DNA of 49,837 nucleotides from a virus. The stretch is from the IMG/VR virus record IMGVR_UViG_3300021335_001867, positions 1 through 49,837 of that record; one strand, 5' to 3'. Below, in pieces: positions 8,673 to 42,187 of this stretch (positions within the stretch are counted from its first letter, which is position 1; each line of letters starts with the position of its first letter). Made by a program: the position numbers and the translations under genes. The notes beneath the pieces are model-generated. The model did no database searches and was not told the origin of the DNA. It saw only the letters and a list, made by a program, of their open reading frames with translations.

Positions 8673-10160
8673 ATGTATAAAAACTACCAATTAAAAAATA
8701 AAAAGTTTATTGTAATAGGAACCGGTACTAGTGGTCTAGTTACTGCTGCCTCATTGTCATTTTCATATCCTAATTGTGATATAGTCGTTGTCGACAAGGA
8801 TAAACCAGAGATTATCGGTGTAGGCGAAGGCACTACTCGTAATTTCCAATCAATGATGGAGATGTGTGGTTACACAATCTCAGATTGGTTTGAGCCATTA
8901 CAGGCTACTTTTAAAATAGGCGTAGATTTCCAAAATTTTGGTATGGATGGAACAGATGTTTGGCATCCATTTACCGCAAATTACAAAGAAATGGATGATT
9001 GGGCAATGCAAGAACTTCATCCATCAACATTTAGAGATTTAGTTTTTCCTGATTATTTACCTTGGGTAAGAAACCATAAACATCCAATTTTTACAGAACA
9101 ACACGGGTATGGCTTCCATATCGATGCACATTTATTAAATAAATTCCTATTTGAAAAACTTCAAAAGAGAAAAAATGTAGAGTTTATTTTTGATAGTATA
9201 GTTAAAGTTAATTATGGGGGTGACAACGGTGATGGTGATATTATTGATTTATCTCTAGCTAGTGGTGCCCAGGTATCTGCTGATTTATATTTTGATGGTA
9301 GTGGTTTTGCAGGCGTAGCATCAAAAAATAAAGATAAAGTTGATGTATTAGGTGATTTATTTGTAGACTCTGCGGCTGTGATACAAGTACCTTTTAATGA
9401 TACGGTCATTGCACCTTCAGTTACAGTGGCGTCAGCATGTGATCATGGATGGATATGGACTATTCCAACTAGAGAAAGAATCGGTAGTGGTTTAGTTTTT
9501 AACAAGAGTTGCACAACATTAGACGAAGCTAAAGACACTTTGTATAATTTTTGGCAACAAAGGGCTAACGTATCTATCGATAAAAATTCAATAAAAATTT
9601 TACAATGGCATCCGTTTTATCTAAAAAATCCTTGGCAAGGCAACAGTGTTTCTGTGGGATTATCAAGTAGTTTTGTAGAACCGCTCGAAGCGACTTCATT
9701 ACAAAATTTGAGTCTGATGGTTGGTCGTATTGTAGGTAATGTAGAAAATTATTTTGTTGGATCTCATGATTTTATAGGAGAAATTAATCAGTTCCATTAT
9801 GAAATTGTAGATGAATCGATTGATTTTATTCGAGTACATTATGAAACAAAGAGGACCGACACTCCGTTTTGGCAGTATGTAGCTAGGAATTATAAAGTTA
9901 CTAAGAGACAAAGATATTACGAAAACCTTTGTGACGACCCTAATGTAGATGCCGACCACACCACTCCTACTGATTTTTTATTCCAATATGTAAATTGGAG
10001 TCTATGGATGTGTCAACAGAAACACAAAAATATTGTGTATAAAGGTATGTATAGAGAAGGGTATTTAGATGCTGCGAAAGCTAAAGTTGATCATATGGAT
10101 CAAGACGAATTGTTTGATACACTATCTTTAGCAAATTATTATCTTGGCAAATTCAGATGA
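8673..10160 (+). CDS. Flavin-dependent halogenase (tryptophan halogenase family)
   Basis: A 495-residue enzyme with all landmarks of FADH2-dependent halogenases: dinucleotide-binding VIGTGTSG (16-21), GVGEGTTRN, the reactive lysine in ATFKIG (Lys81, at the position of PrnA Lys79), the family motif WIWTIP (260-265) and SSFVEPLEATSLQ with Glu339 at the position of PrnA Glu346. Such enzymes use FADH2, oxygen and halide to halogenate aromatic substrates. A cyanophage member, VirX1, is known to favour iodide. The enzyme needs reduced flavin from a partner; the flavoprotein at 37114-37947 is one candidate (inference). It is followed by a coupled DUF6445-like gene. Confidence 0.93.
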   Translation: MYKNYQLKNKKFIVIGTGTSGLVTAASLSFSYPNCDIVVVDKDKPEIIGVGEGTTRNFQSMMEMCGYTISDWFEPLQATFKIGVDFQNFGMDGTDVWHPFTANYKEMDDWAMQELHPSTFRDLVFPDYLPWVRNHKHPIFTEQHGYGFHIDAHLLNKFLFEKLQKRKNVEFIFDSIVKVNYGGDNGDGDIIDLSLASGAQVSADLYFDGSGFAGVASKNKDKVDVLGDLFVDSAAVIQVPFNDTVIAPSVTVASACDHGWIWTIPTRERIGSGLVFNKSCTTLDEAKDTLYNFWQQRANVSIDKNSIKILQWHPFYLKNPWQGNSVSVGLSSSFVEPLEATSLQNLSLMVGRIVGNVENYFVGSHDFIGEINQFHYEIVDESIDFIRVHYETKRTDTPFWQYVARNYKVTKRQRYYENLCDDPNVDADHTTPTDFLFQYVNWSLWMCQQKHKNIVYKGMYREGYLDAAKAKVDHMDQDELFDTLSLANYYLGKFR

Positions 10161-22492: not shown

Positions 22493-22556
22493 ACAAGAGA
22501 TCTTTAGAAAAAGATCTCTTGTGATATCAGTGAGATAGCTCTAAGTCACTGATATC
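22493..22556. other. Two adjacent perfect hairpins upstream of the promoter array
   Basis: ACAAGAGATCTTT (22493-22505) pairs with AAAGATCTCTTGT (22510-22522). Immediately next, GATATCAGTGA (22523-22533) pairs with TCACTGATATC (22546-22556). The second sequence family recurs before promoters at 23871 and 27889. They may insulate the array from upstream transcription, or be binding sites. Confidence 0.7.
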
Positions 22557-22573
22557 ATCCTGTATCATTTCCG

Positions 22574-22602
22574 TTGCGATTCTCATCCCGTGCTAGTATA
22601 CT
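22574..22602 (+). promoter_or_regulatory. Array promoter P1, TTGCGA-17-TATACT
   Basis: TTGCGA and TATACT with 17 bp between, followed by ATGAACAGTGAGCGACAC, the start of the leader shared through the array. It drives the genes at 22647 and 22823. Confidence 0.75.
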
Positions 22603-23062: not shown

Positions 23063-23091
23063 TTGACTTCCGAAAGGGAGTCAGCTATACT
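23063..23091 (+). promoter_or_regulatory. Array promoter P2, TTGACT-17-TATACT
   Basis: Preceded by an A9 tract. GACTTCC in the -35 side pairs with GGGAGTC in the spacer. The leader reads CAGTGAGCGAGCAGCTC, with GAGC/GCTC dyad, then TTCCAAAACTCC and AGGAG before ATG 23146. Confidence 0.85.
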
Positions 23092-23145
23092 ATTAAAACA
23101 GTGAGCGAGCAGCTCTTCCTTCCAAAACTCCAACTAGGAGATCCA

Positions 23146-23466
23146 ATGCCAGAACTATCCAATACAGTTTACTCATTCTGCTCAGATCCCAGTCACGGTT
23201 GGCTAGCAGTTCCGCAGGCTGATCTCGCCCGTGTAGGTCTTTCCGCTGCAGACCTGTCAACATTCAGCTTTTGGGACTCAGAATACTTCTACTTAGAAGA
23301 GGACATGGACTATGCGATCTTCTGCCGTGCCTTTGAGCGCACCGTAGGACACGCTCCAAACGTGAGATTTATTCCCTCAACAAGAGGCAGACATTCAATC
23401 CGCCGCAAGAACCGCAACATCATTGGTTGTACAGACAGTTCAAAACTCATCTCTCTAATGGCATAA
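23146..23466 (+). CDS. Small phage protein, 106 aa
   Basis: ATG 23146 is chosen because AGGAGATCCA precedes it, as in the other cassettes. A longer in-frame version from 23101 would translate the leader itself. The protein has an acidic-aromatic middle (FWDSEYFYLEEDMDYAIF) and a basic C-terminus (RGRHSIRRKNRN). Unknown function. Confidence 0.65.
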   Translation: MPELSNTVYSFCSDPSHGWLAVPQADLARVGLSAADLSTFSFWDSEYFYLEEDMDYAIFCRAFERTVGHAPNVRFIPSTRGRHSIRRKNRNIIGCTDSSKLISLMA

Positions 23467-23467
23467 A

Positions 23468-23626
23468 ATGGTAGTAGAAGCAGTAGTAAGGATCACGTTG
23501 AAAGACGGATATGACCTTTCCGACCCAGATCGTGTAATAGATGTGCTTAATGAAATGGATTATGAGTTTCGGTCCGATGCGATCGAAGACACTGAAATCG
23601 TAGACTTCAATTGGGAGATAGACTGA
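23468..23626 (+). CDS. Small acidic protein, 52 aa
   Basis: ATG 23468 starts right after the previous stop. The 52 residues (MVVEAVVRITLKDGYDLSDPDRVIDVLNEMDYEF...) fit a beta-alpha-beta pattern. The stop overlaps the next ATG. Weak ribosome binding site, so translation is probably coupled. Confidence 0.55.
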   Translation: MVVEAVVRITLKDGYDLSDPDRVIDVLNEMDYEFRSDAIEDTEIVDFNWEID

Positions 23627-23805
23627 TGACATATATGGAAGCAGATCAGCGCCTAACCGCAATCCTAGACAAGAGGGTTAAAGAATGTACCGAAAACGAA
23701 GACTTACGGAACAGTCATTCCTACAGGCTAGGGGTGTTAATAAATATGATGTCTTGTGTACTAACCAACAGTCAATTACGGAAGTTTGAACAAGGAGTGC
23801 TCTAA
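23626..23805 (+). CDS. Small helical protein, 59 aa
   Basis: ATG 23626 overlaps the previous stop (TGATG) with GGGAG upstream; in-frame earlier starts are ignored. A helical protein with MEADQRLTAILDKRVKECTENEDLRN, a pattern seen in small early proteins of T4-like marine phages. Ends before a hairpin and promoter P3. Confidence 0.6.
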   Translation: MTYMEADQRLTAILDKRVKECTENEDLRNSHSYRLGVLINMMSCVLTNSQLRKFEQGVL

Positions 23806-23821
23806 AAAAGATCCTTAACAA

Positions 23822-23851
23822 GATCAGTGACTTACAGCTAAGTCACTGATC
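23822..23851 (+). terminator. Hairpin (13-bp stem) between cassettes
   Basis: GATCAGTGACTTA (23822-23834) pairs perfectly with TAAGTCACTGATC (23839-23851) around CAGC. A T-rich tract begins about 12 bases on, inside promoter P3. It probably reduces read-through into the next cassette. The same sequence family is seen at 22523 and about 27839. Confidence 0.6.
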
Positions 23852-23870
23852 CTACAGGGAATCATTTTTG

Positions 23871-23899
23871 TTGATTTTTTTGCCCCAATCAACTATACT
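23871..23899 (+). promoter_or_regulatory. Array promoter P3, TTGATT-17-TATACT
   Basis: TTGATT is the left arm and AATCAA in the spacer the right arm of a dyad spanning the -35 box. Leader CAGTGAGCGATTAGCTC keeps the GAGC/GCTC pairing. Drives the gene at 23955. Confidence 0.8.
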
Positions 23900-23954
23900 A
23901 TTTAGACAGTGAGCGATTAGCTCGTCCTTCCAAAAACTCCAACTAGGAGATCCA

Positions 23955-24161
23955 ATGTCAAGCATTCCATTCGTTAGCAGAGCACAGATGACTTTCCGCC
24001 CAAAAGCAGAGAAGCGCTCAAGGAACTTGGACGCAGACCTGCGCACGAGCCAAGTCTACCTACTAGAGGGCAGGACTGTTGAGGAGACTATGAAGTCAGC
24101 TCGTCTAAACAATCGCCGTTATGAGACAATCGGAGGCAAGAAATTTTTGGTAGTCAGCTAA
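23955..24161 (+). CDS. Small basic protein, 68 aa
   Basis: Starts behind the standard array site AGGAGATCCA. A basic protein with a helix-rich C-terminal half (SQVYLLEGRTVEETMKSARLNNRRYETIGGKKF) that could be a small DNA- or RNA-binding domain (inference). Stop is followed by the A-tract of P4. Confidence 0.6.
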   Translation: MSSIPFVSRAQMTFRPKAEKRSRNLDADLRTSQVYLLEGRTVEETMKSARLNNRRYETIGGKKFLVVS

Positions 24162-24168
24162 AAAAAGG

Positions 24169-24197
24169 TTGACTTTTTCCTGCTCGTTCGCTATACT
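24169..24197 (+). promoter_or_regulatory. Array promoter P4, TTGACT-17-TATACT
   Basis: The spacer contains GCTCGTTCGCT and the leader contains the exact inverse AGCGAACGAGC (24209-24219), so here the dyad brackets the -10 box and start site. Drives the gene at 24252. Confidence 0.85.
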
Positions 24198-24251
24198 ATT
24201 AAGACAATGAGCGAACGAGCTCCACTCCAGAAACTGCAACGAGAGTTGGCT

Positions 24252-24452
24252 ATGAAAAGAAAAAGTATCATTAAATCAACATATACTATCATCGGCTCTG
24301 CAGACGGAGAGGTAATTGATGTAACAGAAGTGAAAGGAATTAAACCAGCACGAGATATTTTAGCATCGTGGGAAAACTCAGGACGATACTCAAAAGTGAC
24401 CCTCAAGCCAAAAGATATATTGTTGAAGGAATTGAGAGGAATATTGATATGA
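24252..24452 (+). CDS. Small protein, 66 aa
   Basis: ATG 24252 follows GAGAG; an in-frame ATG at 24207 lies almost at the predicted transcription start and is not used. The protein (MKRKSIIKSTYTIIGSADGEVIDVTEVKGIKPARDILASW...) looks like a small beta-rich fold. It overlaps the next gene by 4 bases. Confidence 0.55.
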   Translation: MKRKSIIKSTYTIIGSADGEVIDVTEVKGIKPARDILASWENSGRYSKVTLKPKDILLKELRGILI

Positions 24453-24724
24453 CTGTAATTACAGTAAAGGCTGACACTGGGATGGAATTTACTGCAACCG
24501 AACAAGCGATTGTCAAAGTCATTGCAGACCTTCCTGACGGCAAGTATACTTTGACAATTAAAGGTGATGATCATCCAGCAGCAATGGCTGTCCTGACTTA
24601 CCGCCGAGCCGCAGCAAGGAGAGCATGGGCATATGTCGCCCAGGGTGCTTTCGTTGAGATACCTGACAGCGACTACTATCAGAATAAATGGTCAAGCATC
24701 GCTGACAGGCTTTCTGCAAATTAA
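24449..24724 (+). CDS. Small protein, 91 aa
   Basis: ATG 24449 overlaps the previous stop (ATGA) with AGAGGA upstream; the longer frame from 24368 is not used. The N-terminus is beta-type (MTVITVKADTGMEF...GKYTLTIKGDDHP), the C-terminus a helix with an Arg/Ala run. Unknown. Confidence 0.6.
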   Translation: MTVITVKADTGMEFTATEQAIVKVIADLPDGKYTLTIKGDDHPAAMAVLTYRRAAARRAWAYVAQGAFVEIPDSDYYQNKWSSIADRLSAN

Positions 24725-24737
24725 ATTAAAAAAAAGG

Positions 24738-24766
24738 TTGACACGAGGACTTGGTCCTGCTATACT
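24738..24766 (+). promoter_or_regulatory. Array promoter P5, TTGACA-17-TATACT
   Basis: Spacer dyad AGGAC-ttg-GTCCT. An A-tract lies upstream. Leader CAGTGAGCGAACAGCTC, TTCCAAAACTCC, AGGAG, ATG 24821. Confidence 0.85.
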
Positions 24767-24820
24767 ATTAAGACAGTGAGCGAACAGCTCTTCCTTCCAA
24801 AACTCCAACCAGGAGATCCA

Positions 24821-25027
24821 ATGTCAGATACACGAAAAGCCACTAACCGACTATTAGAACTAGTAGGCGACGGACTGCTAGATCAGTATCAGGTAATCCT
24901 GGCCTGTGTAAAGTATATGAGCGAGGACGATGTTGCAGACATGTGTCACCTAAACGAGTTTTTTGAGCAGGAGGACGAGGACCTGCTGGACGACTTCAAC
25001 TACGCAGGCAGTCGTCATCATTATTAA
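24821..25027 (+). CDS. Small acidic phage protein, 68 aa
   Basis: The protein (MSDTRKATNRLLELVGDGLLDQYQVILACVKYMSEDDVADMCHLNEFF) has a pattern that recurs in small hypothetical proteins of T4-like marine phages. A helical N-terminal domain is followed by a very acidic tail. Single gene of the P5 cassette. Confidence 0.7.
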   Translation: MSDTRKATNRLLELVGDGLLDQYQVILACVKYMSEDDVADMCHLNEFFEQEDEDLLDDFNYAGSRHHY

Positions 25028-25035
25028 AAAAAAGG

Positions 25036-25064
25036 TTGACACGAGGCGTTGAGCCTGCTATACT
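25036..25064 (+). promoter_or_regulatory. Array promoter P6, TTGACA-17-TATACT
   Basis: Spacer dyad AGGC-gttga-GCCT, upstream A-tract, leader CAGTGAGCGACAAGCTT. The ATG at 25120 follows AAGAGGGCACA. Confidence 0.85.
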
Positions 25065-25119
25065 ATTAAGACAGTGAGCGACAAGCTTGCATTTTTCCAA
25101 TCTACGCTAAGAGGGCACA

Positions 25120-25497
25120 ATGGCAACAAGAGCAAGAATTGCATACCGCTACACAGACGGATCATATGTTTCTGCTTATCATCATTGGGACGGCTATTTA
25201 GACGGCTTAGGACTACTGTTAACAGAACATTATACAGATCCTAAACTAATTGAGAAATGCATACAAAAAGGCAACGCTTCTACATGGAAGTCTGAACCTG
25301 AGCACAATGATTACTATCACAACGAGCGTTGTATGACGCATGCCGATACGAAGGCACTAATGGAAGACGCTTGGAACATGGATGAGGAATATCTTTATGT
25401 ATACTCAGAAAAACTGCAAGGTTGGAGTGTACGATTCCGCAACGGAGATATGACACGGATCTCAGCTGAAAGTATTTTGTCAGCAAGAGAAAAATAA
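25120..25497 (+). CDS. Conserved phage protein of the MATRARI type
   Basis: A 125-residue protein starting MATRARIAYRYTDGSYVSAYHHWDGYLDGLG. This N-terminal pattern (ATRARI, then a short substrate-like loop with H-x-DGY) is common in hypothetical proteins of many phages. Function unknown. Single-gene cassette of P6. Confidence 0.75.
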   Translation: MATRARIAYRYTDGSYVSAYHHWDGYLDGLGLLLTEHYTDPKLIEKCIQKGNASTWKSEPEHNDYYHNERCMTHADTKALMEDAWNMDEEYLYVYSEKLQGWSVRFRNGDMTRISAESILSAREK

Positions 25498-25500
25498 AGG

Positions 25501-25529
25501 TTGACAGCAGGGCCAGGCCCTGCTATACT
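25501..25529 (+). promoter_or_regulatory. Array promoter P7, spacer is a perfect palindrome
   Basis: TTGACA, then the whole 17-bp spacer is GCAGGGC-CAG-GCCCTGC, then TATACT. Leader TTGAGCGAGTCAGCTC. It drives the AAA ATPase at 25583. Confidence 0.88.
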
Positions 25530-25582
25530 ATTAAAACATTGAGCGAGTCAGCTCACTTTTCCAACTCTACAAGAGAACAAGC

Positions 25583-26584
25583 ATGTCAAACGTAAGAATA
25601 CTTGAAGGCACATACAAGATCCGCGGCAATGACACATCTGTTGCGGGTATGATATTCCCACTAGTAGACGACTTCCGATTTGGCGCTAACGGAGGCTTTG
25701 TCACAGTAGACGCGAGGAACATTCCAGGCTTTCCAGATCGCAACATCAAGATCCGTGTCCCTAACGACAAAGCTTACGAACTGACCGGAGATCATCAGAT
25801 CGCTGCTCCTAAAGAGACAGACGAACAGACTATCGAAAGACTGCGCGAACGATTTGACATGTTGGAGGATATGACGCGAGCATGCAAGAAGGGCGATGTA
25901 CGTGCAATGATCGTGTCAGGTCCTCCGGGAGTAGGCAAGTCACACGGTGTTGAGAAAGTACTTGCAAAGCATGATATGATCACAACGCTTGCGAATACTG
26001 CTCCTAAATACGTAATCGTAAAAGGCGCGATGAGTCCGCTGGGTCTATATATGAAACTGTACAACTATTCTGCTAAAGATAATGTTGTAGTTTTTGATGA
26101 CTGTGACAGCATCTTTCAAGATGAACTTAGTCTTAACATCTTAAAAGCTGCATTAGATAGCAAGAAGACACGTAAGATCTTTTGGAATACTGACAGTCGT
26201 GCGCTTCGTTCGGAAGGTATTCCAGATCAGTTCGAGTTTAAAGGCTCTGCAGTATTCATCACTAATCTAAAGTTTGAGAAAGTCAAAGGCAAATTGCGTG
26301 AGCACTTAGAAGCATTAGAGTCACGCTGTCACTACATCGACCTAACTATCGACACAGATAGAGAGAAGATGTTACGTATCAAGCAGATCGTATCAGACGG
26401 CATGCTCGACGAATATGCATTCGAAGGTGACGTGCAAGAGGAGATACTTGACTTTGTTACAATTAATAAAGATCGCTTGAGAGAACTCAGTCTTCGGACT
26501 GTGCTTAAGATTGCAGATCTTGCAAAAGCTTTTCCAGACAAATGGGAGAGCATGTCTGAGAATACAGTGATGCGTCGAGCCTAA
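25583..26584 (+). CDS. AAA family ATPase
   Basis: A 333-residue ATPase: Walker A GPPGVGKS (113-120), Walker B VVVFDDCD (168-175), a sensor-1-like FWNTDSRAL, and a downstream SRCHYID that may hold the arginine finger. The first 80 residues are a beta-rich domain of unknown role. Similar stand-alone AAA ATPases occur in T4-like marine phages. It is by far the longest gene in the promoter array and the only one with an evident enzymatic fold, possibly remodelling host or phage complexes early in infection (inference). Confidence 0.85.
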   Translation: MSNVRILEGTYKIRGNDTSVAGMIFPLVDDFRFGANGGFVTVDARNIPGFPDRNIKIRVPNDKAYELTGDHQIAAPKETDEQTIERLRERFDMLEDMTRACKKGDVRAMIVSGPPGVGKSHGVEKVLAKHDMITTLANTAPKYVIVKGAMSPLGLYMKLYNYSAKDNVVVFDDCDSIFQDELSLNILKAALDSKKTRKIFWNTDSRALRSEGIPDQFEFKGSAVFITNLKFEKVKGKLREHLEALESRCHYIDLTIDTDREKMLRIKQIVSDGMLDEYAFEGDVQEEILDFVTINKDRLRELSLRTVLKIADLAKAFPDKWESMSENTVMRRA

Positions 26585-26659
26585 GCCCTCGGGCTCCGCA
26601 TTGCACGGGCGGCAGTGCCCCTCAGCTGTCGCCCCAGAACAAAAAAAATAAAAAAAAGG

Positions 26660-26688
26660 TTGACGCGAGCACAAGGCTTTGCTATACT
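26660..26688 (+). promoter_or_regulatory. Array promoter P8, TTGACG-17-TATACT
   Basis: Upstream A-tract and the standard leader CAGTGAGCGACAAGCTC with AGGAG before ATG 26745. The spacer dyad is weak here (only scattered GC pairs). Confidence 0.82.
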
Positions 26689-26744
26689 ATTAATACAGTG
26701 AGCGACAAGCTCATCCTTCCAATCACTCCACATAGGAGATCACA

Positions 26745-27020
26745 ATGGCAGCAAGACGCAAGACAATCGACTTAGACACTTTCGTCAACTGGTGCAACGA
26801 CAGGCTCGCCAAGAGCAATTTCCAAGAACGAGACAGCACAGAAGGTGTTGGCTATCGCAAGGGCATTATGACAGCCGTTGAAGAGGCGCTGTTCAGTGCT
26901 AATCGCTACCAAGGCTATCGCGCCATCCGTCCACACGAAGTTGAAGTGAAAGACGGCTGGGGATACGACGATGCGACTGGTGAGTGGAACGATGACACTC
27001 GTCGCAAGTATTTCATCTAA
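26745..27020 (+). CDS. Small phage protein, 91 aa
   Basis: The protein (MAARRKTIDLDTFVNWCNDRLAKSNFQERDSTEGVGYRKGIMTAVEEALF...) has a helical N-terminal domain and an aromatic, acidic C-terminus (GWGYDDATGEWNDDTRRKYF). Followed by a perfect hairpin. Unknown function. Confidence 0.65.
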   Translation: MAARRKTIDLDTFVNWCNDRLAKSNFQERDSTEGVGYRKGIMTAVEEALFSANRYQGYRAIRPHEVEVKDGWGYDDATGEWNDDTRRKYFI

Positions 27021-27022
27021 CC

Positions 27023-27047
27023 ACAGCAGGGGCTTAGGCCCCGCTGT
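27023..27047 (+). terminator. GC-rich hairpin without T run
   Basis: ACAGC-a-GGGGC (27023-27033) pairs with GCCCCGCTGT (27038-27047) around TTAG. No T run follows, so it may be an RNA-stabilising or processing hairpin more than a terminator. Its right arm matches the 15-bp repeat at 21444 and 21497. Confidence 0.5.
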
Positions 27048-27082
27048 ATGTATACGTAACAATCCTAACCTAAAGGAGATTG

Positions 27083-27241
27083 ATGATCGACGACAAACGC
27101 ACCAGTGAAGATATCCGCAAGGAGATCAAGCAATTGAAAAAGCTTGTGAAGGTAAAGCAAGAACTGTTAGGCATCGTGCTGATGCAGGAAGAGCTAAGCC
27201 AGATCAAACTACAGAAGACTTTCGACGCGGCCGGTAACTAA
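27083..27241 (+). CDS. Small coiled-coil protein, 52 aa
   Basis: ATG 27083 follows AAAGGAGATTG. The 52-residue product (MIDDKRTSEDIRKEIKQLKKLVKVKQELLG...) is a charged heptad-type helix. It lies downstream of the P8 gene without its own promoter. Confidence 0.6.
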   Translation: MIDDKRTSEDIRKEIKQLKKLVKVKQELLGIVLMQEELSQIKLQKTFDAAGN

Positions 27242-27265
27242 TTAATTTAATCTAAGGAGCACGAC

Positions 27266-27448
27266 ATGGCACAGGTAACCAAGCGAGTACAATCACTTTC
27301 AAAGACAGTACAAGAAGTAGAAGAAGACATCTGCTGGCTGCAGCGACATGCAGTGAACGGCATCGTACCGCAGAAGGTACAGAAAGAACTGCAGGACCTG
27401 CAGCGGACACGAGCTAGCCTGATTGAACGACAAACAGAGCTGGCATAA
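27266..27448 (+). CDS. Small coiled-coil protein, 60 aa
   Basis: Behind AAGGAGCACGAC. A helical protein (MAQVTKRVQSLSKTVQEVEEDICWLQRHAV...) with heptads, similar in style to the gene before it. It ends 10 bases before tRNA-Pro, so gene and tRNAs are probably co-transcribed. Confidence 0.6.
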   Translation: MAQVTKRVQSLSKTVQEVEEDICWLQRHAVNGIVPQKVQKELQDLQRTRASLIERQTELA

Positions 27449-27458
27449 AGGATTCGTT

Positions 27459-27535
27459 CTGCGTGTAGTTCAGTCTGGTAGAACACTTGTTTTGGGAACA
27501 AGAGGTCGTTGGTTCGAGTCCAGCCACGCAGACCA
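27459..27535 (+). tRNA. tRNA-Pro (anticodon TGG)
   Basis: Acceptor CTGCGTG/CACGCAG with the C1-G72 pair typical of bacterial tRNA-Pro, anticodon arm CTTGT-TTTGGGA-ACAAG, T arm GTTGG-TTCGAGT-CCAGC, encoded CCA. Confidence 0.95.
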
Positions 27536-27538
27536 TTA

Positions 27539-27615
<77 letters not shown>

Positions 27616-27636
27616 CACTTCACGATGGGAATCACA

Positions 27637-27867
27637 ATGACAACGATACAGAAACGATACAATAAACTAAGACAGATGTCAATCCAGGAATTAGAAACAG
27701 AGCGATCTAGCCTGTATGAAGAGATGGAACGAGAAGAAGAAGATCCCTACGGAGGATGGGGGAGCTGTCTCCACGACAGCCTAAGCCTGGATGTGTCAAT
27801 TGTAGAAGAGGTGCTGGACGAAAAAAAGAAAGCCAACAAGATCAGTGACTTAGCCTTAATCTACTGA
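27637..27867 (+). CDS. Small acidic helical protein, 76 aa
   Basis: ATG 27637 is preferred over ATG 27625 because GGGAATCACA before it resembles the array translation starts. The protein (MTTIQKRYNKLRQMSIQELETERSSLYEEMEREEEDPYGG...) is acidic and helical. Its end is followed by an imperfect hairpin of the GATCAGTGACTTA family and promoter P9. Confidence 0.55.
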   Translation: MTTIQKRYNKLRQMSIQELETERSSLYEEMEREEEDPYGGWGSCLHDSLSLDVSIVEEVLDEKKKANKISDLALIY

Positions 27868-27888
27868 TATCGCAAGAGATCTTTTCTG

Positions 27889-27917
27889 TTGATTTTTTGG
27901 ACCGGATCAGATATACT
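27889..27917 (+). promoter_or_regulatory. Array promoter P9, TTGATT-17-TATACT
   Basis: A member of the subclass with TTGATT and a T-rich upstream tract after a hairpin. Spacer ends GGATCAGA, giving partial symmetry with TTGATT. The leader lacks the GAGC/GCTC dyad (CATAGTGAATGATACC). Drives the gene at 27961. Confidence 0.75.
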
Positions 27918-27960
27918 ATATTCATAGTGAATGATACCACAACGCCAACTAGGAGCGAAC

Positions 27961-28155
27961 ATGACACGAGAGCAAATCGAACAAGCAACACAGGCATTCC
28001 TTGCAAACGGCGGAGAGATCCAGAAGATGCCAGAGCGCAAATCCTACACCTGGGCAGACATCAGCACGATGCTGGAGCGGATACTAGATCAGGTAGACGG
28101 CATTGATGACGAAGTGGAAGCCGGAGGATATGATGAAGCTGCCGTAGGCGTATAA
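27961..28155 (+). CDS. Small phage protein, 64 aa
   Basis: ATG 27961 follows AGGAGCGAAC; the earlier in-frame start at 27931 is ignored. The protein (MTREQIEQATQAFLANGGEIQKMPE...) resembles small hypothetical proteins of T4-like phages and could be a short helix-turn-helix-type fold; this is weak inference. Confidence 0.6.
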   Translation: MTREQIEQATQAFLANGGEIQKMPERKSYTWADISTMLERILDQVDGIDDEVEAGGYDEAAVGV

Positions 28156-28159
28156 ATAT
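28151..28159 (+). promoter_or_regulatory. Late-promoter-like TATAAATAT
   Basis: TATAAATAT overlaps the stop region of the previous gene and ends 18 bases before ATG 28178, with AAAGGAG between. A late box inside the early array suggests that the glycine-zipper gene is controlled separately. Confidence 0.45.
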
Positions 28160-28177
28160 CACACAAAGGAGATCACT

Positions 28178-28621
28178 ATGAAAAAGTTCATCACCATTAT
28201 CGCAGCCGCAATCATCGCCACACCTGCTGTCGCACTCACGATTGATGGTAGTCCAAGGATTGAAGACCACTACAAGGATATCACCCGCAAGGTGCCGGTA
28301 ACTGAAACAGTCTGTACTGATCGCCAGGTGCCAGTCCACCGGGAATCATTCTCCACTGGTAAGGCAGTGATTGGTGGAATCATTGGTGGAATCATTGGTC
28401 ACAACCTAGGTGGTAAGAACAATCGCCATGTCACCGCATCATTTGGCACGCTCGCTGGCTCAGTGATCGGCGGATCAGAGAACGAAGTGCAAGGCTACCG
28501 GACGCAGACAAACTGCGAAAACCAGACTTCATACCACTCACAGACTGAAACAGTCTACAGCCACAGCACCATCACCTTCACAGAAAACGGCAAGACCTAC
28601 AGACTAAATTTCCAAAAATAA
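28178..28621 (+). CDS. Exported glycine-zipper protein (17-kDa-antigen-like)
   Basis: A 147-residue protein with signal peptide (MKKFITIIAAAIIATPAVA), a periplasmic part with two or more cysteines (VCTDRQVPV, TNCENQT), and a glycine-zipper core (GKAVIGGIIGGIIGHNLGG ... GTLAGSVIGG) like that of Rickettsia 17-kDa antigen or SlyB-type envelope proteins. No lipobox is present. It likely inserts in or bridges the outer membrane. Its late-type promoter box fits a role in lysis or superinfection control; both are inference. Confidence 0.8.
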   Translation: MKKFITIIAAAIIATPAVALTIDGSPRIEDHYKDITRKVPVTETVCTDRQVPVHRESFSTGKAVIGGIIGGIIGHNLGGKNNRHVTASFGTLAGSVIGGSENEVQGYRTQTNCENQTSYHSQTETVYSHSTITFTENGKTYRLNFQK

Positions 28622-28634
28622 TTTAAAAAAATGG

Positions 28635-28663
28635 TTGACCTTTTCGCTCAGCGATCGTATACT
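28635..28663 (+). promoter_or_regulatory. Array promoter P10, TTGACC-17-TATACT
   Basis: The spacer holds TTCGCTCA, whose inverse TGAGCGAA is in the leader (28674-28681), and an inner CGCT/AGCG dyad. Leader CTGAGCGAACAGCTCC, then CAGGAG before ATG 28719. Confidence 0.85.
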
Positions 28664-28718
28664 ATTTAGACACTGAGCGAACAGCTCCACTCCGCCCACT
28701 CCACACCAGGAGACGAAG

Positions 28719-28970
28719 ATGACAAAGAAAGAAAGACTACAATTACCAGCAGTGAAATTAGGTGCTACCGGACAACATTTAGATACGAGCCCATTAGCTA
28801 AGGCAAAGGCTTTTTCCAAGTTTGGCAAGCCCAGTGAAGGTGATGTTATTGACGGAATGATGTCGTTGAAGGATAGTACAGATTGGATGGAGTTTGTGCT
28901 CATTAGGCATCCAGAAGGCGATATGAGCTTGGGACTTTCTGGTAAACTACTCCTCCAACTGAGCCTCTAA
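28719..28970 (+). CDS. Small phage protein, 83 aa
   Basis: The protein (MTKKERLQLPAVKLGATGQHLDTSPLAKAKAFSKFGKPSEGDVI...) is mixed alpha/beta with a hydrophobic C-terminus. Single gene of the P10 cassette. Not recognised. Confidence 0.6.
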   Translation: MTKKERLQLPAVKLGATGQHLDTSPLAKAKAFSKFGKPSEGDVIDGMMSLKDSTDWMEFVLIRHPEGDMSLGLSGKLLLQLSL

Positions 28971-28988
28971 AAAAGATAAGAAAAATGG

Positions 28989-29017
28989 TTGACTTCTTCC
29001 AAGGAGTCAACTATACT
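28989..29017 (+). promoter_or_regulatory. Array promoter P11, TTGACT-17-TATACT
   Basis: TTGACT pairs with AGTCAA in the spacer (6-bp dyad around a 10-base centre). Leader CTGAGCGAACAGCTCC, TAGGAG, ATG 29072. Confidence 0.87.
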
Positions 29018-29071
29018 ATATAGACACTGAGCGAACAGCTCCACTCCGCCCACTCCACACTAGGAGATCAC

Positions 29072-29299
29072 ATGCCACAGTCAGTCTACCACATCCAATT
29101 ACAAGAGATCCAAGAAGAGATTGATCTGCTGAACGAAGCCTGCAGTAGGCCAGAAGAAGACGAGTTCCAGATCATGCGTTGGCGAGATCGTATCTTTGAT
29201 CTGGAGCAAGAGCAGATCTTAATTGAGCAGCGACAGGCAGAGCTGGATCAGATGGACGACGACTACGCCTTGTTTGAAGACTTCATCGAATTTGTTTAA
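29072..29299 (+). CDS. Small acidic coiled-coil protein, 75 aa
   Basis: MPQSVYHIQLQEIQEEIDLLNEACSRPEEDEF... then a second helix ending in an acidic tail (DQMDDDYALFEDF). Heptads are clear in both halves. First of two genes behind P11. Confidence 0.62.
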   Translation: MPQSVYHIQLQEIQEEIDLLNEACSRPEEDEFQIMRWRDRIFDLEQEQILIEQRQAELDQMDDDYALFEDFIEFV

Positions 29300-29318
29300 T
29301 CACTACCAAGGAGACATC

Positions 29319-29537
29319 ATGAGTGTAGCAGCCAACATGAACTTCATCTGGGGCGCCATTGCCAACAAGAGCCGCACAATGATCCAAACAGATCAAGGAC
29401 CAATGAAGATCTTTTCCATCCGCACCAAAGCAGGAGTGGATATGGAGATCATGGCCGTCAACAACCAAACCAACAACCACACCTTCATCACAGTCACTCC
29501 AGACAATTCCTGTGACATCAGATCACGACTTTTTTAA
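29319..29537 (+). CDS. Small phage protein, 72 aa
   Basis: ATG 29319 follows AAGGAGACATC. The protein (MSVAANMNFIWGAIANKSRTMIQTDQGPMKIFSIRTKAG...) appears beta-rich, a possible small barrel. The longer frame starting at 29223 runs in another frame through the previous gene and is rejected as the start. Confidence 0.6.
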   Translation: MSVAANMNFIWGAIANKSRTMIQTDQGPMKIFSIRTKAGVDMEIMAVNNQTNNHTFITVTPDNSCDIRSRLF

Positions 29538-29546
29538 AAAAAAAGG

Positions 29547-29575
29547 TTGACTGTTTCGCTCAGAGGTCGTATACT
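29547..29575 (+). promoter_or_regulatory. Array promoter P12, TTGACT-17-TATACT
   Basis: Spacer TTCGCTCAG and leader CTGAGCGA are inverse copies, as in P10. Leader CTGAGCGACAAGCTCC. Drives the gene at 29629. Confidence 0.85.
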
Positions 29576-29628
29576 GTATAGACACTGAGCGACAAGCTCC
29601 AATTGCAAACTTGCACCAGAGAGGTAGC

Positions 29629-29889
29629 ATGCAGGTAGAGAACTTCACAGTAGAGCAGATCAAAGAAATTGAGACCGCAGAGACTGTAGAAACTGCACGG
29701 ATCTTGATGCGGAACATTATTGATACCAGCTCAAAAGGCAAGCGACCAATCAAGCCAGCCAAGCGTCAGTATCTGCTGAATCAAACTGCACGGGCTCGTC
29801 GTGTTGTTGATGTTGCCGCAATAGCCTACAACATGTTGCTCGCAGGCGAAGGACTCCGCAGTTTAGACTCAACTTATTTCGCAAAATAA
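29629..29889 (+). CDS. Small basic helical protein, 86 aa
   Basis: ATG 29629 behind GAGAGGTAGC. A helical protein with acidic N-terminal third (EQIKEIETAETVETA) and a basic remainder (KAKRQYLLNQTARARRVV-like stretch), ending in a conserved-looking NMLLAGEGLRSLD. Possibly a small nucleic-acid-associated early protein. Confidence 0.6.
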   Translation: MQVENFTVEQIKEIETAETVETARILMRNIIDTSSKGKRPIKPAKRQYLLNQTARARRVVDVAAIAYNMLLAGEGLRSLDSTYFAK

Positions 29890-29902
29890 TTTAAAATAAT
29901 GG

Positions 29903-29931
29903 TTGACTTCTGAAAAGGAGTCAACTATACT
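29903..29931 (+). promoter_or_regulatory. Array promoter P13, TTGACT-17-TATACT
   Basis: TTGACT/AGTCAA dyad as in P11. The leader is a variant, CTGGGCGACACGCTC, where both arms have shifted in parallel (GCG/CGC instead of GAGC/GCTC). Drives the gene at 29986. Confidence 0.85.
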
Positions 29932-29985
29932 ATATTCATACTGGGCGACACGCTCACTTCCAATAACTCCAACAGAGAGTTCCAA

Positions 29986-30229: not shown

Positions 30230-30258
30230 TTGCTTTTTTTATGCTAGTAAACTATACT
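30230..30258 (+). promoter_or_regulatory. Array promoter P14, TTGCTT-17-TATACT
   Basis: Last member of the array, of the T-rich subclass. Its leader diverges and carries an intrinsic-terminator-like hairpin at 30270-30293. Drives the gene at 30315. Confidence 0.7.
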
Positions 30259-30269
30259 ATTAAAACATT

Positions 30270-30293
30270 GCAGCTTTACTTGCTGCGTTTTTT
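30270..30293 (+). terminator. Terminator-like hairpin in the P14 leader (possible attenuator)
   Basis: GCAGC (30270-30274) pairs with GCTGC (30282-30286) and is followed by GTTTTTT. It lies between promoter P14 and the ATG at 30315, so it may attenuate the gene. Confidence 0.5.
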
Positions 30294-39830: not shown

Positions 39831-40633
39831 TGATTTTGATTTAATTTAGTAATATCAGTACATACAATATTTGCAAAATCTTGGTGTCTTCTTGGTCCTG
39901 CATGCATACAATCTCTAGCTCGATCATATTTGTATCTTTTTGGGTTTTCACCTCCATATGCTTGGAAATAGAATGAGTCGTAGTGTAAAAATTCTGCGTT
40001 GTTTTGTATTGCAATTTGCTGCAAAGCCAATAAATTTTTTTCTCGTTGTAAAAAAATATTACTTTCGTTTCGTGAAAAAAATTCCCAAGCAGCCTGAAAG
40101 TCTCTTTTATCTAAATCCGAATGAGAGTTTATTTGACAGTACCCATATCCGTGCCCAGGTTTAGTACCTTTAAATTCCATTCTGCATGGATCAGGTTCTA
40201 CATATACAATATATCGAGGCTGTATTATTGGAATCCAATAATAACCTACTCTAAAGCATGTCTCATTAGCACCGCCCCCTATTCCTAGATTAAAATTTTT
40301 TAAGTGTAAACGGCTAGAAACCACAGAAGCAAATGTCATATGTTCTGGCAAACCTATACCAAGTGTATGGCTACATCCCAACCATACTATAGAATTTGGT
40401 TCTTTTTCTAATTCAGGGCATCTAAATCCTTTACTGTTAAATTTATATTCAATTGAGTTTTCGCTCCAATTGTTTTTTGCGATGAATTTTCTATTTTTAT
40501 AGTGTATTCTATTCGCTCTAAAATTTTCTTCATCATCTGTCGGCACCCATTTTACAGTTTTGTTAAAATAGCAATCGTATCCTAAAAAATCTAATTCATT
40601 TGGTTGTTCAGTAGTGTAAATGTTATCTTCCAT
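39827..40633 (-). CDS. SGNH/GDSL-hydrolase-like protein (paralogue 2)
   Basis: ATG 40633 is used: ACAGGA stands upstream and it overlaps the carbamoyltransferase end by 11 bases. The 268-residue protein has the GCSHTLGIGL block (Ser88), a GIGGGANETC block, and DCMHAGPRRHQDFA at the C-terminus (Asp241, His244, His250). It shares these and the FNSKGFRC segment with the protein at 2861-3613. Likely acts on acyl or sugar esters. The pairing with a carbamoyltransferase suggests glycan or metabolite tailoring (inference). Confidence 0.72.
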   Translation of the reverse strand: MEDNIYTTEQPNELDFLGYDCYFNKTVKWVPTDDEENFRANRIHYKNRKFIAKNNWSENSIEYKFNSKGFRCPELEKEPNSIVWLGCSHTLGIGLPEHMTFASVVSSRLHLKNFNLGIGGGANETCFRVGYYWIPIIQPRYIVYVEPDPCRMEFKGTKPGHGYGYCQINSHSDLDKRDFQAAWEFFSRNESNIFLQREKNLLALQQIAIQNNAEFLHYDSFYFQAYGGENPKRYKYDRARDCMHAGPRRHQDFANIVCTDITKLNQNH

Positions 40634-42164
40634 TATTTTTTCCTGTAAAAACTTTAACCTCATAGGTTTTTTCAAATTCTTTTGCATCTGTTAATGTATT
40701 TACTATGGGTTTGCCTTTTATATTGAGACTTGTGTTCAACAGCATAGGACAGCCAGTTAGTTCGTACCATTTTTCCAACAGCGCTCTAAAACCAGGGTGA
40801 TCCTGCTTTGTAACTGTTTGAACTCTGCTGGTTCCGTCTGCGTGGACAATTGCAGGGTATCGTTCAGGATCCTTACAATGTGCGGTGTACTGCATATAAC
40901 GTCCGAAGGGCGGCTCAAATAAACTGGATGCGTGTTCTGCAAGGACTGCAGGTGCGAAGGGACGGAACTTCTGTCTACGTTTAATGGCATTGACTTTATC
41001 TTTAATATCCATACGCTGAGGGTCAGCAAGAAGGCTGCGAGCGCCAAGGCTACGAGGACCGAACTCGGCTCTTCCTGACGCAACCCCTGCAATACCCGTT
41101 TGCATAAGTTCTTTAACGATTTCATCTACTGGATACTCTCCTCCTATATCGTAACCTAGATAAGGTCCAGGCCATTCTATGTGTGTGCCTCTATGTGCAA
41201 GCACTGCACCTATGCAACTGCCTGCATCGCCTGGATTAGGCATTATCCATATGTTATCTGCGCCATTCCAGTGTTCAACTATCTTGCTGTTAGCACTGCA
41301 ATTCAAAGCACAGCCGCCCATAAACACTAGGTTACTGCTAGCGTATGTCCTAGCTACAGCCTTACTTATCCTAGTTAATATGTGCTCATATGCCCATTGT
41401 GTTCCTGCTGCTATGTCATATGCCCATTGCGTAAATTCTTGCTTATCATCTACGATATTAAATGCAATCTTAGTAGGCTCCCACCACATGCATCCTCTAT
41501 GTAGATTGTGCTTTAGCTGGAAGTTAGGAAGACGATTAAAGATATTTAAATGGTTAGGAAACTGTTCCCAAAAATCGTTTAATATAGTTTCGCCATACTT
41601 ACCAGCATCACCATATGCTGCCATTCCCATAAGTATGTATTCTTCTTCATTTGGCTTCAATCCAATACGTTGTGTCATTGCACTGTACCAAATGCCAATA
41701 CTGTTAGGATAGTTCCAAGTTCGTTTACAAGTAAGTTTATCATATTCACCTTCCCATACGCTTAGTGTATTCCACTCTCCTATTGCATCTATGACCAGAA
41801 CTGTTGCATGTTCGAATCCGCTAGTATAGTATCCAGCTGCCGCATGTGAATGATGATGACCTACCGTTGATATAGGCGCTGTTAATCCAAAAGATTTTAA
41901 ATATTTTTTTATACGATTCTTGTTTAATAAATCTGTTTGTCCAGCATACCATTGTCTTGTAGTTTTTAGAAAAGGTTTTTCGTACCATATAATCCTGTTA
42001 GGTTCTCCCCATTGAAATGCATAATCGATAATATCTTGATTTAAATGAGCATCATTTTTAATACCGCTAAATCTTTCTGTATGGCTAGCAAATTCAATTT
42101 TGTCATTAATATGAACTGATATAGCTGCGTCATGACTGTTTGCGCTTATTCCCCAAGTAATCAT
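40623..42164 (-). CDS. Carbamoyltransferase, NodU/CmcH family
   Basis: A 513-residue enzyme with the family landmarks: ITWGISANSHDAAISV at the start, GHHHSHAAAGYYTSGF (metal histidines), LVIDAIGEW, GGCALNCSANSKI (the glycine/asparagine carbamoyl-adenylate site), EFGPRSLGARSLLADP and the C-terminal RPFAPAVL block. It transfers carbamoyl from carbamoyl phosphate via carbamoyl-AMP to a hydroxyl group, as in Nod factors or cephamycins. Related genes are common in T4-like marine phages; the acceptor is unknown. ATG 42164 is preferred over a TTG at 42176. Confidence 0.92.
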   Translation of the reverse strand: MITWGISANSHDAAISVHINDKIEFASHTERFSGIKNDAHLNQDIIDYAFQWGEPNRIIWYEKPFLKTTRQWYAGQTDLLNKNRIKKYLKSFGLTAPISTVGHHHSHAAAGYYTSGFEHATVLVIDAIGEWNTLSVWEGEYDKLTCKRTWNYPNSIGIWYSAMTQRIGLKPNEEEYILMGMAAYGDAGKYGETILNDFWEQFPNHLNIFNRLPNFQLKHNLHRGCMWWEPTKIAFNIVDDKQEFTQWAYDIAAGTQWAYEHILTRISKAVARTYASSNLVFMGGCALNCSANSKIVEHWNGADNIWIMPNPGDAGSCIGAVLAHRGTHIEWPGPYLGYDIGGEYPVDEIVKELMQTGIAGVASGRAEFGPRSLGARSLLADPQRMDIKDKVNAIKRRQKFRPFAPAVLAEHASSLFEPPFGRYMQYTAHCKDPERYPAIVHADGTSRVQTVTKQDHPGFRALLEKWYELTGCPMLLNTSLNIKGKPIVNTLTDAKEFEKTYEVKVFTGKNNGR

Positions 42165-42187
42165 AAAATTTTCCAATAAATATTTGT

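What the first reader, a model, noticed from the sequence alone, without database searches (positions are those of the whole stretch)
23063..29931. Dyad symmetry in promoter spacers and in the 5' leader, with changing sequence
In many of the cassettes the -35/spacer region forms an inverted repeat whose sequence differs from copy to copy: TTGACT/AGTCAA (P11, P13), TTGATT/AATCAA (P3), AGGAC/GTCCT (P5), and in P7 the whole 17-bp spacer is GCAGGGC-CAG-GCCCTGC. P4, P10 and P12 instead pair the spacer with the leader (GCTCGTTCGCT with AGCGAACGAGC; TTCGCTCA with TGAGCGAA). The leader has its own GAGC...GCTC pairing, and in P13 both arms have changed together. Symmetry kept while sequence varies argues for selection on structure: extruded hairpins, as for hairpin promoters used by some phage RNA polymerases, or a 5' RNA stem-loop that protects the message. 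P1, P8 and P14 lack a clear spacer dyad.
Basis: partly seen in the sequence, partly recalled or inferred. Interest (0 to 1): 0.75.

Follow-up and report, generated by a model that had tools for sequence, protein, structure and literature searches.

The report
RNA hairpins overprinted on phage promoters
In a group of uncultivated phages, the start signals of many small early genes also spell a snap-back hairpin whose letters change from copy to copy while the pairing is kept; the evidence says it works as RNA, as the tail-end hairpin of the gene before, written on top of the next gene's promoter.

Summary
Spacer dyads in the window exceed shuffled spacers (z -6.6) and column-permuted promoters (z -6.9). 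Across relatives the pairing is kept while both arms change: 52 promoters, z -13; 204 further promoters from 49 loci, z -12; a downstream control shows no excess. Similar promoters of other viruses show little of it.

Three results point to RNA rather than DNA hairpins. (1) Stem imperfections are G.T on the coding strand, not A.C: 34 to 11, then 46 to 4 in new loci (expected about half), so the pairing that is kept is that of the sense RNA. (2) The hairpin has no fixed register to the promoter: -35 or -10 may lie in a stem, in a loop or outside. (3) It is anchored to the upstream gene: 35 of 48 strong hairpins start 0-19 nt after that gene's stop codon, and they are concentrated where promoter and stop codon abut. 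Window exceptions P1, P3, P8, P9 and P14 have a separate hairpin upstream.

A promoter's own transcript lacks its spacer, so this is a 3' element of read-through RNA. Only 1 of 58 has a U-rich tail, so it is mostly not an intrinsic terminator. The separate 5' leader stem-loop also covaries. Exact function is inferred, not shown.

The parts
22522..22557 (+). Separate hairpin upstream of P1 (TGATATCAGTGA..TAAGTCACTGATATCA); P1 has no spacer dyad
22574..22602 (+). P1 promoter TTGCGA-17-TATACT
23063..23091 (+). P2 promoter; spacer hairpin TTGACTTCC-GAAA-GGGAGTCAG at 23063-23084 (T.G wobble on the + strand), starting 9 nt after the upstream stop codon
23103..23115 (+). P2 5' leader stem-loop GAGC-gagca-GCTC (example of the conserved leader stem)
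23804..23869 (+). Composite hairpin upstream of P3, followed by a U-tract overlapping the P3 -35
23871..23899 (+). P3 promoter TTGATT-17-TATACT, weak long-loop dyad TTGATT/AATCAA
24152..24174 (+). Terminator-like hairpin AGTCAGC/GGTTGACT formed by the end of the upstream gene and the P4 -35, followed by TTTT
24169..24197 (+). P4 promoter
24182..24220 (+). P4 spacer-leader hairpin GCTCGTTCGCT/AGCGAACGAGC, 11 bp, 17-nt loop holding most of the -10 and the start region
24738..24766 (+). P5 promoter; spacer hairpin AGGAC-ttg-GTCCT at 24746-24758
25036..25064 (+). P6 promoter; spacer hairpin AGGC-gttga-GCCT at 25044-25056
25501..25529 (+). P7 promoter; spacer hairpin GCAGGGC-cag-GCCCTGC at 25507-25523
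26607..26634 (+). Separate hairpin GGGCGGCAG..CTGTCGCCC upstream of P8
26660..26688 (+). P8 promoter; weak spacer hairpin with G.T pairs at 26665-26682
27023..27047 (+). Promoterless intergenic hairpin CAGC(A)GGGGC-ttag-GCCCCGCTG of the same kind
27889..27917 (+). P9 promoter, with a degenerate upstream hairpin plus U-tract; weak wobble-rich spacer dyad
28635..28663 (+). P10 promoter; spacer TTCGCTCAG (28643-28651) pairs with leader CTGAGCGAA (28673-28681)
28989..29017 (+). P11 promoter; hairpin TTGACTTCT-tcca-AGGAGTCAA at 28989-29010 with T.G wobble
29547..29575 (+). P12 promoter; spacer TCGCTCAG (29556-29563) pairs with leader CTGAGCGA (29585-29592)
29903..29931 (+). P13 promoter; hairpin TTGACTTCT-gaaa-AGGAGTCAA at 29903-29924 with T.G wobble
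29942..29956 (+). P13 leader stem-loop with both arms changed, TGGGCG-aca-CGCTCA
30230..30258 (+). P14 promoter TTGCTT-17-TATACT, upstream hairpin plus U-tract instead of a strong spacer dyad
30269..30287 (+). P14 leader hairpin TGCAGC..GCTGCG followed by TTTTTT (attenuator-like)

Best explanation
Two RNA stem-loops meet at each cassette boundary. The 'spacer dyad' is the 3' hairpin of the gene BEFORE the promoter. Transcription reading out of that gene crosses the next promoter, and the resulting RNA folds within about 20 nt of the stop codon. The intergenic gap is almost entirely filled by the next gene's sigma-70 promoter, so the hairpin is written on top of it, wherever it fits: -35 in a stem or loop, the spacer alone, spacer plus -10, or spacer plus leader. 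Where the gap is longer the hairpin tends to sit upstream, sometimes as an ordinary U-tract terminator. Most likely job (inferred): to define and protect the 3' end of the upstream message and separate it from the next unit, by blocking 3'-to-5' exonucleases after release or cleavage in the A/U-rich -10/start region. The GAGC..GCTC leader is a second, independent stem-loop at the 5' end of the newly started message, plausibly protective. Shown: pairing selected, sense strand, anchoring to the upstream stop codon, lack of a U-tract, leader covariation. Inferred: read-through transcription, transcription start sites, and the 3' protection/insulation role.
For: Pairing kept while sequence changes: window z -6.6/-6.9; same genus, 22 promoters, -35 to +30, z -8.6; other relatives, 52 promoters, z -13.1 with control region z +0.8; 204 promoters from new loci, z -12.3. 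Hairpins that include the -10: 10 sequences, 100% paired, 4 pairs with both-sided changes, covariation 0.413 vs shuffled 0.122; in register-slid versions at most 0.129. Sense RNA: G.T vs A.C inside stems 34:11 (p 5e-4) and 46:4 (p 3e-8). Upstream-gene anchoring: stems of at least 8 Watson-Crick pairs in 37 abutting vs 4 distant promoters, against 85 and 78 without (p 4e-6); 35 of 48 strong hairpins start 0-19 nt after the stop codon, 77% within -5..+30 vs 31% under uniform placement; hairpin position tracks the stop codon, Spearman -0.46, p 9e-4. Exceptions P1, P3, P8, P9, P14 have separate upstream hairpins. A relative has lost the -10 yet keeps a 12-bp hairpin there (L217). Little of it in clade B (z -1.7) or 90 other viral promoters (z -2.3).
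Against: No transcript data, so read-through and 3' ends are unobserved. Only 58 of 187 promoters lying within 60 nt of the upstream stop codon carry a stem of at least 8 Watson-Crick pairs overlapping the promoter, so it is common but not obligatory. With a simple energy cut-off (-6.5) the link to the upstream gene was significant in the discovery set but not in the new loci (p 0.45); it held there for strong hairpins (-10, p 0.009) and for the stem-count measure chosen afterwards. Promoters are related, so p-values are optimistic. Spacer-leader hairpins (P4, P10, P12) disrupt the leader stem in read-through RNA and fit a 3'-protection role less neatly. The antisense strand also folds better than null, though less.
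Confidence: 0.6

Rival explanations
1. Promoter-embedded intrinsic terminators: the hairpin stops upstream transcription and the -10 (TATACTATT) serves as a poor U-tract, so terminator and promoter are fused.
For: The position just after the stop codon is that of a terminator; boundaries with longer gaps include real U-tract terminators; P7, L042_2156 and L217 score just above zero on the d'Aubenton-Carafa scale as I applied it; the P4 -35 forms a terminator-like hairpin with TTTT.
Against: Tails are no more U-rich than the same positions in hairpin-less promoters (T score 2.32 vs 2.22, p 0.23); only 1 of 58 has at least 5 T in 8. Most of the scored promoter dyads are well below zero.
Confidence: 0.2
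2. DNA-level hairpin promoters: cruciforms extrude under supercoiling and help a polymerase bind or melt the site, as for N4 virion RNA polymerase.
For: The dyads overlap promoters, and some stems are 5-7 bp with 3-4-nt loops.
Against: A cruciform needs both strands, but imperfections pair only on the + strand (46 G.T vs 4 A.C). No fixed register. Dependence on the upstream gene. Full sigma-70 hexamers are kept. No N4-type polymerase was found, but that search was not informative.
Confidence: 0.07
3. The dyads are operators for a dimeric phage regulator bound between -35 and -10.
For: A subset of relatives shares an ACAGTATAGC..GCTATACTGT-like palindrome.
Against: No common arm sequence in the window or across relatives; variable register; in the shared subset, arm changes are matched by partner changes, and two promoters have G.U at one pair.
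Confidence: 0.05
4. Antisense terminators: on the - strand the dyad is followed by the U-run complementary to the A-tract upstream of the -35, stopping leftward transcription from the replication genes.
For: P2 and P11 read as hairpin plus U-run on the - strand; genes right of 33.8 kb run leftward.
Against: P5-P7 have 8-10 nt between stem and U-run; many relatives carry TTAGGGG, not an A-tract, at that place; G.T imperfections break the - strand stem.
Confidence: 0.04
5. Mutational by-product: template-switch errors keep making quasi-palindromes, with no function.
For: Such errors are known in phages (from memory; no call) and would make dyads of any sequence.
Against: They predict neither G.T over A.C (46:4) nor anchoring to stop codons nor restriction to these phages.
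Confidence: 0.04

Closest known systems
Rho-independent (intrinsic) terminators
   Same: Stable sense-strand RNA hairpin just after a stop codon, arms free to vary
   Different: No U-tract in nearly all cases; overprinted on the next gene's -35/spacer/-10
Protective 3'/intercistronic mRNA hairpins and CUUCGG-type intergenic hairpins of T4-like phages (from memory)
   Same: Variable-sequence, stable-loop hairpins between genes; one relative uses GCAC-UUCG-GUGC (L042_2156), P2 and P13 use GAAA
   Different: Here they systematically overlap functional-looking sigma-70 promoters
phAPEC8 promoter plus 5' stem-loop elements (called PeSTEM, from memory; no paper found)
   Same: Repeated early promoters followed by a leader stem-loop whose arms vary, like the GAGC..GCTC leader
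   Different: No spacer hairpins seen in the phAPEC8 promoters examined; the leader stem is a separate feature from the spacer dyad
ESAS elements of Cluster K mycobacteriophages (PMC3203893)
   Same: Imperfect 17-bp inverted repeats in front of many small genes
   Different: ESAS arms follow a consensus within each subcluster; here arms are free and only pairing is kept
N4 virion RNA polymerase hairpin promoters (from memory)
   Same: Hairpins at promoters
   Different: Register not fixed, sigma-70 hexamers kept, strand asymmetry, dependence on the upstream gene

Membership tests
Intrinsic terminator | Stable RNA hairpin on the transcribed strand | tested here: met
Intrinsic terminator | U-rich tract directly after the hairpin | tested here: not met
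   1 of 58 has at least 5 T in 8; T score same as control
Intrinsic terminator | Releases RNA polymerase | not testable with these tools
   needs in vitro transcription or Term-seq
N4-type hairpin promoter | Hairpin at a fixed position relative to the start site | tested here: not met
   Hairpin start ranges from -26 to +9 relative to the -35
N4-type hairpin promoter | Virion RNA polymerase encoded | tested here: inconclusive
   1937-aa ORF is a tail/structural protein; PF00940 search silent, its controls silent too, records are fragments
Regulator operator | Shared arm sequence at fixed spacing | tested here: not met
Variable-arm 5' leader stem-loop downstream of an early promoter (phAPEC8 type) | Stem close to the predicted 5' end, arms covarying | tested here: met
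   start site inferred from -10 position only
Variable-arm 5' leader stem-loop downstream of an early promoter (phAPEC8 type) | Stabilises the message | not testable with these tools
   needs RNA half-life measurements
ESAS (Cluster K mycobacteriophages) | Consensus 17-bp inverted-repeat arms next to a 13-bp start-associated sequence | tested here: not met
   Arms differ from copy to copy; the SAS motif itself was not searched for; definition

The most novel reading that the evidence does not exclude
These phages use a U-tract-independent boundary element, a 3' RNA hairpin fused to a sigma-70 promoter, that ends or trims the upstream message and starts the next within the same roughly 30 bp; in the spacer-leader form, read-through RNA and newly started RNA fold differently, so the cell could treat them differently.
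Probability: 0.3. Interest if true: 0.75.

Novelty: new variant of a known kind. Interest (0 to 1): 0.58.

Why it matters
It shows one short DNA stretch under two independent codes at once, a protein-read promoter and an RNA hairpin for the neighbouring gene, with the RNA code recoverable from covariation and G.U asymmetry. It explains how tightly packed phage early genes could keep separate transcription units, and gives a compact part design that can be tested in a laboratory strain. The tests used (G.T against A.C, anchoring to the stop codon) can separate RNA from DNA explanations for other promoter palindromes.

Tried and rejected
DNA cruciform/hairpin promoter, operator, antisense terminator, mutational by-product and U-tract terminator readings were each tested and rejected or down-weighted. 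A rule-based terminator scan gave too few hits to test mutual exclusion (0 of 27 dyads vs 6 of 57 others). Choosing the longest rather than the nearest upstream ORF blurred the distance test, replaced. Comparing each boundary with random genomic windows gave only a modest excess. In the first pair count on alignment A2 the bracket string was one column off; corrected. Paper searches for PeSTEM, for promoter-terminator overlap and for stem-loops at phage early promoters found nothing equivalent. Rfam found only the tRNAs. PA5oct, the closest isolate by helicase, shows no such promoters near its ATPase gene.
Full report
WHAT WAS CHECKED. The window is a 49.8-kb virus fragment with DNA polymerase, primase and DnaB-like helicase genes; its helicase is closest, among isolates, to PA5oct-type Pseudomonas phages (51%). 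Between 22.5 and 30.6 kb, small genes are arranged in cassettes behind 14 promoters of the form TTGACN-17-TATACT with a leader ACANTGAGCGA..GCTC.

IS IT MORE THAN CHANCE. In the window, -35 plus spacer folds far better than shuffled spacers (z -6.6, 0/1000) or promoters with columns permuted among themselves (z -6.9); the - strand also does, but less (z -3.5 and -4.5). P2, P11 and P13 are related copies, so this is not 14 independent events. Adding the same genus (L036, L012, L218; 22 distinct promoters) gives z -5.6 for the spacer, -4.3 for the leader and -8.6 for the whole -35 to +30 region.

RELATIVES. The AAA ATPase at 25583-26584 led to 55 loci. In the 67-86% identical group the leader differs, but dyads are even stronger and often include the -10: ACAGTATAGC..GCTATACTGT, ACAGTATACG..CGTATACTGT, ACACTATAGC..GCTATAGTGT with -10 TATAGT. 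Ten such hairpins are 100% paired with 11 both-sided changes; the same alignment slid by 1-3 columns loses the signal. For 52 distinct promoters z is -13.1 (+) and -10.2 (-), with a downstream control at +0.8. A second search gave 204 promoters unlike the first set, from 49 loci: z -12.3 (+), -9.7 (-), control +3.0. The more distant clade B (54 promoters, z -1.7) and 90 other viral promoters of the same consensus (z -2.3; at least two of its five strongest dyads, L167 and L185, look like this clade) show little.

RNA OR DNA. Treating G.T and A.C as equal imperfections when finding stems, G.T predominates 34:11 (stems of at least 7 Watson-Crick pairs) and 46:4 in the new loci (at least 8), while control windows are near 1:1. 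G.T on the + strand pairs in sense RNA; its complement A.C does not. So sense RNA is what is conserved. A promoter's own transcript begins after its -10, so the spacer hairpin can exist only in RNA reading through from upstream.

WHAT IT IS ATTACHED TO. The hairpin is not at a fixed place in the promoter: the -35 may be in the loop (TTAGGGGTT-gac-AACCCCTAA), or the spacer, the spacer plus -10, or the spacer plus leader may be used. It is attached to the end of the upstream gene: 35 of 48 strong hairpins start 0-19 nt after the stop codon; position relative to the -35 shifts with the gap (Spearman -0.46); 37 of 41 hairpins of at least 8 pairs are at promoters within 30 nt of a stop codon, against 85 of 163 without (p 4e-6). 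The simple energy threshold of -6.5, significant in the discovery set, did not replicate (p 0.45), though -10 did (p 0.009); the stem-count measure was chosen after that, so it should be read as supportive rather than pre-registered. In the window, P1, P3, P8, P9 and P14, the ones with no or weak spacer dyad, have a separate hairpin upstream, in several cases with a U-tract running into the -35. In L217 the promoter upstream of the P6 gene has lost its -10, yet a 12-bp hairpin remains; in the window a promoterless hairpin of the same look lies at 27023-27047.

WHAT IT DOES. Tails after the hairpins are not U-rich (1 of 58), so most cannot be ordinary terminators, although P7 and a few others are borderline and P4 has an additional terminator-like fold using its -35. 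The best-supported reading is a 3' hairpin of the upstream message, protecting or defining its end and separating it from the next unit, overprinted on the promoter for lack of room. This functional step is inference.

THE LEADER. The 5' leader stem-loop is a second element: core pairs form in 15 of 15 distinct sequences with compensatory changes; other forms are TGGGCG/CGCTCA (P13), GTAAGC/GCTTAC (L218) and GCAGC/GCTGC (P14). phAPEC8 early promoters carry a similar variable leader stem. In P4, P10, P12, L036_8532 and perhaps L012_5557 the spacer pairs with the leader's 5' arm, so read-through and new transcripts would fold differently.

LIMITS. No RNA data; promoters and start sites are predicted from sequence; upstream genes come from simple ORF calls; sequences are related, so p-values are optimistic; about two thirds of abutting promoters lack a strong hairpin.

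Noticed in passing
window P2, P3, P5, P8, P10, P11 leaders; L012 cassettes: The Shine-Dalgarno sequence GGAG is paired with an upstream CUCC across a loop of about 5 nt (CTCC-n5-GGAG) in most cassettes, a possible translational control element.
   Followed up: no
window 24169-24724, 28635-28970, 29547-29889 vs L036: Cassettes behind P4, P10 and P12 are present in the window and absent from the relative L036; breakpoints fall at promoters, suggesting cassette gain and loss by recombination between promoter repeats.
   Followed up: partly
window 30269-30290; L036 8894-8925: P14 leader hairpin GCAGC..GCTGC is followed by six T, an attenuator-like arrangement, and its arms differ in length in the relative.
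   Followed up: no
L217 (IMGVR_UViG_3300025853_002401) about 300-345: The promoter before the P6 gene has lost its -10; a 12-bp hairpin TGGTCGCTTAGT/ACTAAGCGACCA stands in its place.
   Followed up: partly
window 8673-10160 and 40623-42176: Tryptophan halogenase-like and Nol-like carbamoyltransferase genes, likely auxiliary metabolic or DNA/glycan-modifying functions.
   Followed up: no
L036 1900-2340: AT-rich tandem TTTGTATATTT-like stretch and four copies of GAACTGAATATTATGTTTTCC just upstream of the first cassette.
   Followed up: no
clade A contigs, downstream of the ATPase: Several relatives have a hairpin or terminator after the ATPase gene with very different arms (CCCGGG.., GAACCTCGC..GCGGGGTTTTT).
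   Followed up: partly
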